A DNA stretch of 64,000 bases from Nocardioidaceae bacterium (GTDB lineage Bacteria; Actinomycetota; Actinomycetes; Propionibacteriales; Nocardioidaceae): contig CP076053.1 in the NCBI GenBank assembly GCA_018672315.1, positions 1,351,827 to 1,415,826 on the forward strand, written 5' to 3'. How positions within the stretch are numbered: the first letter of the stretch is position 1; every line of letters begins with the position of its first letter. The position numbers were made by a program, and so were the translations under genes. The notes below the pieces were generated by a model. It was given only the letters and a program-made list of their open reading frames with translations, was not told the origin of the DNA and did not search any database. Shown here in pieces: positions 60,352-63,669 of the stretch.

Positions 60352-60774
60352 TCAGCCGCGACGAGGTGCGGCGAACACCGCCCACACCTCGGTGCCACCC
60401 TCACGGACGACCCCCCAGTCGACGCTGACCTGCTCGACCATCCACAGGCCTCGGCCGCCGGGCGAGTCGGCGCTCGGGAGCGTCGCGTCGAGTCGGGGGG
60501 CGACCCCGGCATCGGTCACGGAGATGCGTACGCGGTCCGCGGCGAGGGTCCAGGAGACCTCGATGCAGCCGTCCGCGTACGCCTGCCCGTGCCGCACCGC
60601 GTTGCTCAGCAGCTCACCGAGCGCCAACGCGGCCATCGCGGCGGCGTGACGGACCACACGACCGTCCTCCAGGACGTGCTCGAAGGCGTTCCGGGTCTCG
60701 GTGCAGGCGGCGTGGGTGGCCCGCGGCCGGGCGTGGTGCACGGTCTGCTCGGTGCGCTCGCGCTCGATCGTCAT
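60352..60774 (-). CDS. Anti-sigma-factor-type ATPase (RsbW/HATPase_c_2)
   Basis: A 140-residue GHKL ATPase. The N box is L-A-L-G-E-L-L-S-N-A-V-R-H-G (about 50-63), G1 is S-V-T-D-A-G (about 85-90) and G2 is G-G-R-G-L-W-M-V. It belongs to the RsbW/SpoIIAB-like group that binds a sigma factor or phosphorylates a STAS protein. The STAS gene immediately upstream overlaps by 4 bp (ATGA), forming the classic antagonist/anti-sigma pair. No sigma-B-like gene is in the window, so the final target is unknown. Partner phosphatase and sensor genes are divergent at 61292. Confidence 0.87.
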   Translation of the reverse strand: MTIERERTEQTVHHARPRATHAACTETRNAFEHVLEDGRVVRHAAAMAALALGELLSNAVRHGQAYADGCIEVSWTLAADRVRISVTDAGVAPRLDATLPSADSPGGRGLWMVEQVSVDWGVVREGGTEVWAVFAAPRRG

Positions 60775-61154
60775 GAGCTCTCGCTCCCGTCGCTCGGGTC
60801 ACCGACCCCTTCGGCGGGGGCCGCCGTCTCGTCGTACGGGAGCCCGCAGATCTCCAGGATGCGGGCCGCGATGCTGCCCGCCGCGGCGACGAAGCGCACC
60901 TGCGTACCGATGTCGTCGCCGTGCCGTTTCGCCGCTGCCAGGGCCGCGATGGCCACGCTCAGCAGGTACTCCACCTCGGTCAGCTCGACCGACACGGTCA
61001 CCGGCTCAGGGGTGCGTTCCTCCCCGCCCCCGGCTGCCTCCATGAACGCGAACAGCTCGTCGCGGAAGCGGGGCGTCGAGAGCTCGTCGAGAGTCCCTGC
61101 CACCGAGAAGGTTCGCGAGGCGGGATCCGGGGTAGCCGCATATGGTCGGTCCAC
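60771..61154 (-). CDS. STAS domain anti-anti-sigma factor
   Basis: A 127-residue STAS-like protein. The core S-V-E-L-T-E-V-E-Y-L-L-S-V-A-I-A-A-L aligns with the RsbV/SpoIIAA D-x-x-x-x-x-F-L-D-S-S-G-L segment; a Ser remains at the phosphorylation position but the usual Asp-Ser-Ser-Gly is altered, so regulation by phosphorylation is plausible rather than proven. The C-terminus is acidic. GTG 61154 has TACCCT 7 nt upstream. It is first in the STAS-HATPase pair and divergent from the PP2C/B12 pair. Confidence 0.75.
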   Translation of the reverse strand: MDRPYAATPDPASRTFSVAGTLDELSTPRFRDELFAFMEAAGGGEERTPEPVTVSVELTEVEYLLSVAIAALAAAKRHGDDIGTQVRFVAAAGSIAARILEICGLPYDETAAPAEGVGDPSDGSESS

Positions 61155-61160
61155 GATCGA

Positions 61161-61173
61161 CAGGGTAACCCTG
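61161..61173. promoter_or_regulatory. CAGGGT-A-ACCCTG palindrome over the STAS promoter
   Basis: A perfect 6-bp inverted repeat about a single base (61161-61173) overlaps the -10 element TACCCT (61162-61167, minus strand) that lies 7 nt before GTG 61154. It could be an operator controlling the STAS-HATPase pair. Confidence 0.45.
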
Positions 61174-61291
61174 CCCTGTCGCGATCTGTACCTCTGAACC
61201 CGAGCGCGCTACGCTGAGACGGCAAGCGCGTCGTTTCTGCACGCTCAGTGCACGACCGACGTGAACCACCACGGGTCTGGGAGGTGTTCCC

Positions 61292-62665
61292 GTGACCAGT
61301 CCGTTCTTCGTCTCCTCGAAGACCTCCGGCGACGCGGCCGGCGAACGCTACGCCGCCCACCGGCTCGCCGACCTGTGCGTACGCCACATCGAAGCCGTGC
61401 AGCACCCGCAGAAGGCCGTCGAGGCCGTCGTCTGCGAGCTCGTCGAGCACGGTCTCGCCGTCGCCCACATCGCGGTGCACCCGGGCACGTCCTGGATCGC
61501 CGCGGCGGCGACCACCGACGTCGTGCCGCTGGACGCCGAGCTCTGCTCGGTCGGCCGCCCCCAGGCGCAGGCGCTGCACGAGATCATCCAGCTGGGCACG
61601 ACCCAGCGCTGGGTCCTGCCCCCGCACACGGCGGACCGCATCCGGCTGCTCTCGCTCGTCTTCGGCGACACCGAGCTCGTCGAGCGCATCGAGGAGGCGG
61701 CGAGCAAGGAGCTGCTGTTCTTCCCGCTCCGCGCCCGCGGCCGCGGCTACGGCCTGCTGTCGGTGGCCTTCCGCGGGTCCGCGGAGCTGCGCTCGGAGGC
61801 TGTCGGCGACCTGGAGCTGCTCGTCGACCGGGTGGCGATGTCGCTCGACACGTGCGCGCTGCTCTCCGAGGGCCGCTACCTCGCCTCGACGATGCGCGAG
61901 GCCCTGATCCCCCCGATGCCCCAGCTCGCGCGCGCCGAGCTCGGCCTGTGGAGCCGTGTCGCCGACGCCGGCCTGGGCCTCGGCGGCGACTGCGTCGCCG
62001 TGACCGGCGACGAGGACGACCTCTCGGTCGTCGTCGCCGACGCGATGGGCAAGGGCGTCGAGGCGGCCGTGACCGCGAAGCGCCTCCACGCGGCCTTCCG
62101 CACCGCGGCCCGTGTGGACCGCCGCCCGTCGTGGGTCCTCGACATCGTCAACCAGGTCGCCTCCGACGAGCCCGAGGAGTACGCCGGCTTCTTCACCACC
62201 GCCGCCTGCGTACGCAGCCGCCCGCAGCCCGAGGGCAGCCTGCTGGTCGACGTGGCCACCGCGGGCCACTGCCCGCCCCTGGTGCTCCGGGCCGACGGCA
62301 TCGTCGAGACGATGCAGGCGCGAGGGCCCGTGCTCGGTCTGTATCCCGACCCGGAGTTCACCGCCGACACGGTGACGCTGGAGCCCGGCGACTCCCTGCT
62401 CATCTACACCGACGGCATCACCGAGGCGCAGAGCGCCGACGACGTCTTCGGCGAGGAGCGGCTGACCGAGGAGCTCGTCCCCCTGGCCGGGCTCCGGGCG
62501 CAGGCCATGGCCGAGCGCCTCGGCCTGCTCGTCGACGACTTCGCCGACCGGCTGCGTGACCAGGACGACCGCACGGTCATGGTGGTGCGCTGTCCCGTGC
62601 GACCGGTCGAGACGGCTGCCGCCCACCTCGACGAGCCGCGCTCCCTCGACTCCCGGGCCTCATGA
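61292..62665 (+). CDS. PP2C-type (SpoIIE/RsbU) phosphatase with GAF-like sensor domain
   Basis: A 457-residue protein. Residues about 25-195 look like a GAF domain (C-V-R-H-I-E-A-V-Q-H-P-Q-K-A-V...K-E-L-L-F-F-P-L-R-A-R-G-R-G-Y-G-L-L-S-V-A-F). The SpoIIE-type PP2C domain follows: G-G-D-C-V-A-V-T, V-V-A-D-A-M-G-K-G-V-E-A-A (metal Asp), A-G-H-C-P-P-L-V and Y-T-D-G-I-T-E-A. Such enzymes dephosphorylate STAS proteins to release sigma factors. GGGAGGTG precedes GTG 61292. Its stop overlaps the B12-binding gene's start by 4 bp, tying the phosphatase to a cobalamin sensor. Confidence 0.9.
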   Translation: MTSPFFVSSKTSGDAAGERYAAHRLADLCVRHIEAVQHPQKAVEAVVCELVEHGLAVAHIAVHPGTSWIAAAATTDVVPLDAELCSVGRPQAQALHEIIQLGTTQRWVLPPHTADRIRLLSLVFGDTELVERIEEAASKELLFFPLRARGRGYGLLSVAFRGSAELRSEAVGDLELLVDRVAMSLDTCALLSEGRYLASTMREALIPPMPQLARAELGLWSRVADAGLGLGGDCVAVTGDEDDLSVVVADAMGKGVEAAVTAKRLHAAFRTAARVDRRPSWVLDIVNQVASDEPEEYAGFFTTAACVRSRPQPEGSLLVDVATAGHCPPLVLRADGIVETMQARGPVLGLYPDPEFTADTVTLEPGDSLLIYTDGITEAQSADDVFGEERLTEELVPLAGLRAQAMAERLGLLVDDFADRLRDQDDRTVMVVRCPVRPVETAAAHLDEPRSLDSRAS

Positions 62666-63669
62666 CCGGGACGGTCACCGAGCTCGCGACCCCCGAGGTC
62701 CGGGACTACTGGAAGCACGTCGAGGCCGACGACCTGTCCGGCGCCCTCGGTGCCGCGGTGTCCCTCATCGAGCAGGGATGGAGCGTCACCGACATCGTGG
62801 AGCGGCTCCTCACCCCCACCCAGCACCACGTCGGCCAGCTGTGGGCGGACGACGCCTGGTCGGTCTCGCGGGAGCACGCCGCCACCGCGCTCAACGAGGC
62901 GGTGCTGCGTCGGGTCGGCACGATCCGCCGCACCTCGCAGACCAAGCCGGCAGGGGCCGAGGTGCTGGTCGTCTGCGCAGAGTCCGAGTGGCACGCCCTG
63001 CCCGGGCTCGCGGTCACGGTGCTGCTGAACGACCAGGACGTGCCCGCGGTCTTCCTCGGCGCCGACCTGCACGTGCCGGCGGTCCACCACGAGACGGTGC
63101 GCCTCAACACCCGCGCCGTCGTCGTCAGCGCCTCGCTCGCCTCCTCGCTGCCGTACGTGCAGCGGCTGGTCGAGGTCGTGCGCTCGGCGCGCGTCCCGGT
63201 CGTGGTCGGCGGGTCCGCCTTCGACCCCGACGGTCTGCGTGCGGCGGCGCTCGGCGCCACGGCGCACGCCGAGCGCGGAGGAGCCCTGCCCGACGTCATC
63301 CGCGCCCTGCCGGCGCGCGTCGCCCCCCTGGTGCTCGTACGCTCCGCCGCCCGCGAGGAGGCCGAGCAGCTCACCGCACGCCGACGCGACATCGCCGCCG
63401 CCGCCATGACGGCCCTGACGCTGACCTCCGAGCGCGACTGGCGCGACTTCGTCGACGACCAGCTGCCACACGTGCTGGGCGCCCTCGAGGCGGCCCTGAT
63501 CGTCAACGACCCGGGTGCGGTGTCCCAGGCCTGGGACTGGCTCGAGCAGGTGCTCGAGCGGCGCGGCGGACACGGCGTCGTCGAGGCCGTCCGCAGCGCG
63601 GTGACCCAGGCCGTGCGCGAGTTCCCCCTCGCGAGCCGCATGCTCGCCGACGTCGCACCACCGCGCTGA
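62662..63669 (+). CDS. Cobalamin-binding regulator with W-x9-EH photoreceptor motif
   Basis: A 335-residue protein. Residues 10-90 form a B12-binding_2-like helical cap, with V-G-Q-L-W (57-61) and the exact W-x9-E-H signature (Trp61, Glu71, His72) of CarH-type B12 photoreceptors. Residues 98-215 are a B12-binding Rossmann domain: E-W-H-A-L-P-G (109-115, cf. E/D-x-H-x-x-G but one residue longer), S-A-S-L-A-S-S and V-V-V-G-G-S-A-F (181-187). There is no MerR DNA-binding domain; instead an about 100-residue helical C-terminus follows. Coupled to a PP2C phosphatase, it probably senses light or cobalamin for a partner-switching cascade. Confidence 0.82.
   Translation: MTGTVTELATPEVRDYWKHVEADDLSGALGAAVSLIEQGWSVTDIVERLLTPTQHHVGQLWADDAWSVSREHAATALNEAVLRRVGTIRRTSQTKPAGAEVLVVCAESEWHALPGLAVTVLLNDQDVPAVFLGADLHVPAVHHETVRLNTRAVVVSASLASSLPYVQRLVEVVRSARVPVVVGGSAFDPDGLRAAALGATAHAERGGALPDVIRALPARVAPLVLVRSAAREEAEQLTARRRDIAAAAMTALTLTSERDWRDFVDDQLPHVLGALEAALIVNDPGAVSQAWDWLEQVLERRGGHGVVEAVRSAVTQAVREFPLASRMLADVAPPR

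What the first reader, a model, noticed from the sequence alone, without database searches (positions are those of the whole stretch)
60352..63669. Cobalamin-photoreceptor-like protein wired to a PP2C/STAS/HATPase partner-switching module
Seen directly: a B12-binding protein (62662-63669) overlapping by 4 bp a SpoIIE-type phosphatase gene, divergent from a STAS-HATPase pair that also overlaps by 4 bp. The B12 protein carries W-x9-E-H (Trp61, Glu71, His72), the cap-domain signature described for CarH-type adenosylcobalamin photoreceptors, followed by a B12-binding Rossmann fold. Unlike CarH/LitR it has no MerR DNA-binding domain; it has a helical C-terminal domain instead. Inference: light-triggered or cobalamin-dependent change in the B12 protein controls the phosphatase, which dephosphorylates the STAS protein and frees a sigma factor from the HATPase. 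That would be a B12/light input to an RsbU-V-W-type cascade. The E-W-H-A-L-P-G loop is one residue longer than canonical ExHxxG, so axial His ligation is not certain.
Basis: partly seen in the sequence, partly recalled or inferred. Interest (0 to 1): 0.82.

Follow-up and report, generated by a model that had tools for sequence, protein, structure and literature searches.

The report
Vitamin-B12 light sensor beside stress-switch genes
This actinobacterium carries a vitamin-B12-based light sensor of the recently described photocobilin family, locked in one operon with a phosphatase that drives an RsbU-V-W-type regulatory switch, an arrangement kept across many actinobacteria but not yet tested in the laboratory.

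Summary
It is a standalone photocobilin: a CarH-like adenosylcobalamin domain plus a C-terminal bilin-type globin. It matches crystallised SasPcob over its full length (E 5.5e-27; fold TM 0.80-0.82). Trp61, Glu71 and His72 even carry the same numbers, and the 'odd' EWHALP loop is the one whose His is the cobalt ligand in that crystal.

The upstream gene is a GAF-linker-PP2C phosphatase with all catalytic aspartates. In 76 of 81 homologous loci from more than ten actinobacterial genera it sits directly upstream, usually overlapping (49 by exactly 4 bp). The STAS/HATPase pair is homologous to pairs beside photocobilin loci in Nocardioides.

New here: a photocobilin clade in which the biliverdin-binding Asp270 is replaced (Gln267 in the window) although PP2C is retained, and, in the same genome, a bacteriophytochrome-PP2C fusion beside heme oxygenase with a STAS/HATPase pair of the same rare subfamily. 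Zhang et al. 2024 already suggested a SpoIIE/STAS link for SasPcob from association networks. Chromophore binding, light response, phosphatase interaction and sigma-factor target remain inferred.

The parts
62662..63669 (+). Standalone photocobilin (335 aa): cap helices with Trp61/Glu71/His72, cobalamin Rossmann domain with axial His111, C-terminal five-helix globin with Trp293 (= SasPcob Trp296) and Gln267 (in place of SasPcob Asp270)
   Evidence: SasPcob 8J2W E 5.5e-27; pLDDT 93; TM 0.80-0.82 to 8J2W/8J2Y
61292..62665 (+). RsbU-type phosphatase (457 aa): GAF-like N-terminal domain, long helical linker (168-205), SpoIIE/PP2C domain with GGD233, D250, D374G, D425D426
   Evidence: these residues invariant in 40 homologues; SpoIIE in 40/40, GAF detected in up to 28 of 40, not itself in the window protein; best match RsbU domain of Rv1364c, 3ke6
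62662..62665 (+). 4-bp overlap of phosphatase stop and photocobilin start (translational coupling)
   Evidence: same 4-bp overlap in 49 of 76 homologous pairs
60771..61154 (-). STAS protein (127 aa) of a divergent 'LxS/LPS' subfamily; candidate phosphoserine Ser66, without the usual Asp before and Gly after it
   Evidence: (best matches are the STAS genes of the Nocardioides photocobilin loci)
60352..60774 (-). RsbW-like HATPase (140 aa), candidate STAS kinase / anti-sigma factor, with N-box ELLSNAVRHG; overlaps STAS by 4 bp
   Evidence: HATPase_c_2; weak RsbW/RsbA matches
61155..61291 (.). Divergent intergenic region between the two operons; holds an 8-bp inverted repeat at 61158-61165 / 61174-61181 next to the STAS start
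   Evidence: function not tested

Best explanation
This is a light-input module for a partner switch. The photocobilin binds adenosylcobalamin and is probably a head-to-tail dimer in the dark. Green light (and red light, if a bilin sits in the globin) breaks the Co-C bond and loosens the dimer. The changed photocobilin acts in trans on the co-translated GAF-linker-PP2C phosphatase, most likely by stabilising or releasing its helical linker and so changing phosphatase-domain dimerisation. The phosphatase then removes phosphate from Ser66 of the STAS protein, which in turn binds the HATPase and frees the HATPase's target, probably a SigB/F/G-type sigma factor encoded elsewhere. Shown by sequence and structure comparison: photocobilin identity, intact PP2C and HATPase motifs, conserved operon. 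Inferred: chromophore loading, light response, direction of the effect, physical contact, and the sigma target. My bet is that light activates the phosphatase, but the direction is uncertain.
For: Full-length sequence match to crystallised photocobilins and fold match TM 0.80-0.82 over the whole chain. Trp61, Glu71, His72 and axial His111 invariant in 84/84 homologues. PP2C directly upstream in 76/81 loci, 59 with overlapping ORFs. STAS genes nearby in 58 loci, and STAS-HATPase-PP2C-photocobilin operons in Nocardioides. The window STAS and HATPase have their best matches among those genes. PP2C catalytic Asp residues invariant, closest fold RsbU of Rv1364c. The genome has a cobalamin adenosyltransferase, a heme oxygenase and two SigB/F/G factors over the cut-off. 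A parallel module in the same genome joins a bacteriophytochrome directly to PP2C beside a STAS/HATPase pair of the same subfamily. Published: AbDPcob light-activates its cyclase more than 10-fold, and standalone photocobilins act in trans on an enzyme (PMC10979010); RsbU-type phosphatases are switched through linker dimerisation by a partner protein (PMC12143880).
Against: Nothing has been measured. Gln267 replaces the main biliverdin contact Asp270, so red-light sensing may be absent. The STAS lacks the usual Asp-Ser-(Ser/Thr)-Gly context (Leu-Ser-Val-Ala). No sigma factor gene is adjacent. The STAS-HATPase pair is divergent, not in the phosphatase operon, and short HATPase genes were detected near only 11 homologous loci. 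For SasPcob without biliverdin the direction of the effect was reversed (PMC10979010).
Confidence: 0.66

Rival explanations
1. The photocobilin is a cobalamin-status or redox sensor rather than a light sensor: AdoCbl occupancy, or its redox state, sets the phosphatase, and light is incidental (as proposed for AerR-type proteins).
For: AbDPcob cyclase activity also differs between apo and AdoCbl-bound dark protein (PMC10979010). AerR-like proteins have been linked to redox control (title and abstract of PMC10734443). Whether the organism lives in light is not known.
Against: Trp61/Glu71/His72, which hold the photolabile adenosyl group at the dimer interface, are invariant in 84/84. The bilin-type globin is retained. 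The sister module in the same genome uses a true bacteriophytochrome for the same output type.
Confidence: 0.2
2. The photocobilin controls the phosphatase, but the adjacent STAS/HATPase pair is not its target: the PP2C acts on another STAS protein (for example the bacteriophytochrome-linked one) or on a target outside sigma-factor control.
For: STAS/HATPase genes are divergent here and absent or different beside many homologous PP2C-photocobilin pairs. Actinobacterial genomes hold many STAS and HATPase paralogues (general knowledge). No adjacent sigma gene.
Against: The window STAS and HATPase belong to the same subfamily as the pairs that are co-operonic with PP2C-photocobilin in Nocardioides. 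Only two copies of this STAS subfamily were found in the genome.
Confidence: 0.25
3. Decayed or moonlighting photocobilin: the clade lost bilin binding and acts as a constitutive structural subunit of the phosphatase.
For: Asp270 replaced by Gln267 and by other residues throughout the clade.
Against: All cobalamin-site residues remain invariant; Trp293 is kept in 83/84; AbDPcob, with His at that position, is still light-active (PMC10979010).
Confidence: 0.06

Closest known systems
SasPcob, standalone photocobilin of Saccharothrix syringae (PDB 8J2W/8J2X; Zhang et al. 2024, PMC10979010)
   Same: Same length and domain order, same Trp61/Glu71/His72 numbering, same EWHALP axial-His loop, globin with conserved Trp; association networks place SasPcob with SpoIIE and STAS proteins
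   Different: About 28% identity; main biliverdin contact Asp270 is Gln267 here; belongs to a separate clade
AbDPcob, photocobilin-diguanylate cyclase (PDB 8J2Y)
   Same: Same photocobilin fold; it too lacks Asp270 (His instead)
   Different: Its output is a fused GGDEF domain; here the output is a separate, co-translated PP2C
CarH/LitR
   Same: Cobalamin domain, W-x9-EH cap signature, axial His
   Different: No MerR DNA-binding domain; extra globin domain; output presumably by protein-protein contact
RsbU/RsbP-RsbV-RsbW partner switch (Bacillus SigB) and Rv1364c
   Same: PP2C with regulatory N-terminal domain and helical linker, STAS substrate with Ser, RsbW-like HATPase
   Different: Sensor is a photocobilin in trans; STAS phosphosite context is non-canonical; no adjacent sigma gene
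Bacteriophytochrome-SpoIIE/PPM phosphatases (an effector class listed in PMC9587094)
   Same: Light sensor driving the same kind of phosphatase; one is present in this genome beside a STAS/HATPase pair of the same subfamily
   Different: Phytochrome fused to the phosphatase instead of a separate AdoCbl photocobilin

Membership tests
Photocobilin | CarH-like B12 domain with W-x9-EH and E/D-x-H motifs | tested here: met
   Trp61, Glu71, His72, Glu109-x-His111; invariant or nearly so in homologues
Photocobilin | C-terminal five-helix globin (photoglobin) domain packed on the B12 domain | tested here: met
   Predicted helices 229-330; full-length fold match TM 0.80-0.82 to 8J2W/8J2Y
Photocobilin | No Cys for covalent bilin attachment in the globin | tested here: met
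   The only Cys of the protein is Cys105, in the Rossmann domain
Photocobilin | Asp270 biliverdin contact (SasPcob; not required by the family, since AbDPcob has His) | tested here: not met
   Gln267 in the window; Asp in 46 of 84 homologues
Photocobilin | Binds AdoCbl and biliverdin; light-driven Co-C cleavage | not testable with these tools
   Needs purified protein
CarH/LitR | N-terminal MerR DNA-binding domain | tested here: not met
   No MerR match; NCBIfam CarH model matches only the cobalamin part, 48.8 bits against a cut-off of 400
RsbU-type PP2C | SpoIIE/PP2C domain with metal-binding aspartates and a helical linker to an N-terminal regulatory domain | tested here: met
   Pfam SpoIIE 7.5e-37; D233, D250, D374, D425/D426 invariant; helix 168-205
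RsbV/SpoIIAA-type STAS | Phosphorylatable Ser in a D-S-(S/T)-G context | tested here: inconclusive
   Ser66 kept, Asp and Gly not; same Ser without Asp in the Nocardioides photocobilin loci
RsbW-type anti-sigma kinase | GHKL/HATPase fold with N-box | tested here: met
   HATPase_c_2 3.1e-15; ELLSNAVRHG seen directly. Kinase and anti-sigma activity not tested
SigB-type partner switch | Cognate sigma factor encoded with the module | tested here: not met
   No sigma gene adjacent; two SigB/F/G factors over the cut-off elsewhere in the genome

The most novel reading that the evidence does not exclude
One cell runs two light inputs of different chemistry into paralogous, possibly cross-talking partner switches: an AdoCbl photocobilin that works a separate PP2C in trans, and a biliverdin phytochrome fused to PP2C beside heme oxygenase, with STAS/HATPase pairs of one rare subfamily. 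The window photocobilin would belong to a clade that gave up the Asp-based bilin site while keeping phosphatase control.
Probability: 0.35. Interest if true: 0.7.

Novelty: new variant of a known kind. Interest (0 to 1): 0.52.

Why it matters
The natural partners of standalone photocobilins are an open question: Zhang et al. call their function 'less clear'. A phosphatase gene sitting directly upstream and usually overlapping in 76 of 81 loci makes the PP2C the obvious partner and gives a small, testable two-protein system. It would put vitamin B12 light sensing at the head of an RsbU-V-W-type stress switch in actinobacteria, and could supply a green-light-controlled protein phosphatase for optogenetics.

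Tried and rejected
1) Asp270/Gln267 against heme oxygenase. Within the Nocardioidaceae clade, Gln and a heme oxygenase gene go together (7 of 8 against 1 of 9, Fisher p 0.003). The tree offers only two independent contrasts, and over all loci there is no pattern (Micromonospora keep Asp270 without a PF01126 gene), so I do not claim it. 2) Heme oxygenase beside STAS/HATPase as a general rule: true in the window's genome, not in the other genomes checked. 3) SasPcob His137 (salt bridge to biliverdin): two alignments disagree (Ala140, a His), left open. 4) A profile of the odd STAS subfamily scored photocobilin-locus members highest, but those were its training members; I rely on the single-sequence searches. 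5) The idea that the His loop is aberrant was rejected from the SasPcob alignment. 6) The photoglobin paper (Schneider 2022, PMC8717448) is not held, and supplements of PMC10979010 could not be read, so I could not check whether their figures already show this operon. 7) Plasmid collection: only partial matches to the B12 half.
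Full report
WHAT IS THERE. The window is G000:C1:1351827-1415826 of a 3.6 Mb one-contig genome; its family is almost certainly Nocardioidaceae, because the 'same family' genome G023 contains a locus that the named collection lists as Nocardioides jiangsuensis.

THE B12 PROTEIN IS A PHOTOCOBILIN. Against all PDB sequences it matches the photocobilins SasPcob (8J2W/8J2X, E 5.5e-27, residues 24-323) and AbDPcob (8J2Y, 2e-16), then CarH over the cobalamin half only. 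A confident AlphaFold2 model (pLDDT 93, pTM 0.91) matches these photocobilins over the whole chain (TM 0.80-0.82). So the 'helical C-terminal domain' is the bilin-type globin. Zhang et al. 2024 (PMC10979010) report Trp61, Glu71 and His72 around the adenosyl group, His108 as axial ligand, and Asp270 and Trp296 around biliverdin. The window has Trp61, Glu71, His72, His111 and Trp293 in those places, but Gln267 for Asp270.

CONSERVATION. A scan of GTDB species genomes found 282 relatives, of which the best 80 loci were kept. Genes were predicted with a simple codon model. Among 81 evaluable standalone photocobilins the gene directly upstream on the same strand is a SpoIIE/PP2C gene in 76; 49 overlap by exactly 4 bp and 59 overlap at all. 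Genera include Nocardioides, Micromonospora, Dactylosporangium, Asanoa, Actinoplanes, Mycolicibacterium, Actinokineospora, Amycolatopsis, Kribbella, Streptacidiphilus and Sphaerisporangium. The sample is biased to close relatives of this protein and rich in Micromonospora. The exceptions are three Nocardioides and two uncultured actinobacterial loci; the GGDEF-fused photocobilin L045, set aside in the count, also has no PP2C beside it. Trp61, Glu71, His72 and the axial His are invariant in 84/84. The tree splits the family into a clade that keeps Asp270 (47 rows including SasPcob, with two exceptions) and one that lacks it (36 rows including the window); the PP2C neighbour is kept in both. Asp270 cannot be a family requirement, since AbDPcob has His there and is still light-active (PMC10979010).

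THE PHOSPHATASE. The model (pLDDT 90) shows an alpha/beta N-terminal domain (GAF is detected in up to 28 of 40 homologues, not in the window protein itself), a 38-residue helix, and a PP2C domain whose best fold match is the RsbU domain of Rv1364c (3ke6). Asp233, Asp250, Asp374 and Asp425/426 are invariant in 40 homologues. This is the layout in which a bound partner activates RsbU by making the linker dimerise (PMC12143880).

STAS AND HATPASE. The window STAS keeps a Ser (Ser66) at the place of the RsbV/SpoIIAA phosphoserine (position of that phosphoserine from general knowledge) but has Leu-Ser-Val-Ala where the usual motif is Asp-Ser-(Ser/Thr)-Gly. Its best matches in all fetched loci are the STAS genes beside photocobilins of Nocardioides, which share the missing Asp ('LPS'); the HATPase likewise matches those pairs best. 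In four of these loci the order STAS-HATPase-PP2C-photocobilin is one co-directional run (L055, L056, L057, L075). STAS genes lie near 58 of the loci and a short HATPase near 11 (the HATPase profile is not sensitive).

A SECOND LIGHT MODULE IN THE SAME GENOME. The only canonical heme oxygenase gene found, at about 2,945,780-2,946,454, is followed by a HATPase (2,946,544-2,946,957), a STAS (2,947,041-2,947,370) and a 766-aa PAS-GAF-PHY-PP2C bacteriophytochrome phosphatase (2,947,581-2,949,881), with the N-terminal Cys of biliverdin-binding phytochromes seen directly (SSCENEPIHIPG). Its STAS is of the same rare subfamily: a search with it finds only itself and the window STAS in this genome, and hits in only one of the 57 other relatives, but in 8 of 15 Nocardioidaceae genomes that hold photocobilins. 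This supports light as the input and supplies biliverdin in the cell. It is evidence by analogy.

SUPPORTING GENOME CONTENT. A PduO-type cobalamin adenosyltransferase and two SigB/F/G sigma factors over the curated cut-off are present; neither sigma gene is near the module. Which sigma factor, if any, is the output is unknown.

NOVELTY. Zhang et al. already wrote that SasPcob potentially interacts with STAS, SpoIIE and PP2C proteins, from network analysis. What this work adds: quantified, near-universal gene coupling in this part of the family; a photocobilin clade in which the biliverdin Asp is replaced; a distinct STAS subfamily tied to it; and the paired phytochrome-PP2C module. The chemistry and output classes are known; the combination is a variant, not a new kind of system.

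WHAT REMAINS INFERRED. Chromophore binding, light response, direction of the effect, physical contact between photocobilin and PP2C, Ser66 phosphorylation, and the sigma-factor end point.

Noticed in passing
L134:7781-11882 (G000:C1:2945780-2949881): Second light module in the same genome: heme oxygenase, HATPase, STAS and a bacteriophytochrome (PAS-GAF-PHY) fused to PP2C, with a STAS of the same rare subfamily as the window's.
   Followed up: yes
L006:973-1866 (G000:C1 about 1500896-1501789): A 297-aa MerR-type protein with a cobalamin-like domain, a W-x9-EH signature and a GARHELG loop: a probable CarH/LitR-type regulator, so a third candidate light input in this genome.
   Followed up: no
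window:61158-61181: 8-bp perfect inverted repeat (CGACAGGG/CCCTGTCG, 8-nt loop) just upstream of the STAS start in the divergent intergenic region; possible operator or leader structure.
   Followed up: no
L103:8985-13103 and L126:9143-13243: In two Mycolicibacterium loci the photocobilin is followed by a ~1370-aa hybrid protein (PAS/GAF, kinase, receiver, PP2C and HATPase by sequence) and then a STAS gene.
   Followed up: no
L061:9107-9985 and similar Micromonospora loci: Micromonospora photocobilin operons continue into a STAS gene and a small single-domain response regulator.
   Followed up: no
L083, L097, L076 (Nocardioides): A photocobilin subclade without a PP2C neighbour; in L083/L097 it lies next to a zinc alcohol dehydrogenase and a metallo-beta-lactamase-fold hydrolase.
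   Followed up: partly
Genomes of L061, L074, L080, L089, L093, L101 (Micromonospora): Photocobilins keep the biliverdin Asp270, yet no PF01126 heme oxygenase was found in these genomes; the source or nature of the globin ligand there is unclear.
   Followed up: partly
L007:6502-16048 (just past the window end): Downstream of the photocobilin: a 283-aa membrane protein resembling DUF1206 (by eye), a membrane histidine kinase (501 aa), and then what looks like the cell-wall cluster of FHA, PP2C (PstP-like), FtsW/RodA, PBP and Ser/Thr kinase genes.
   Followed up: no
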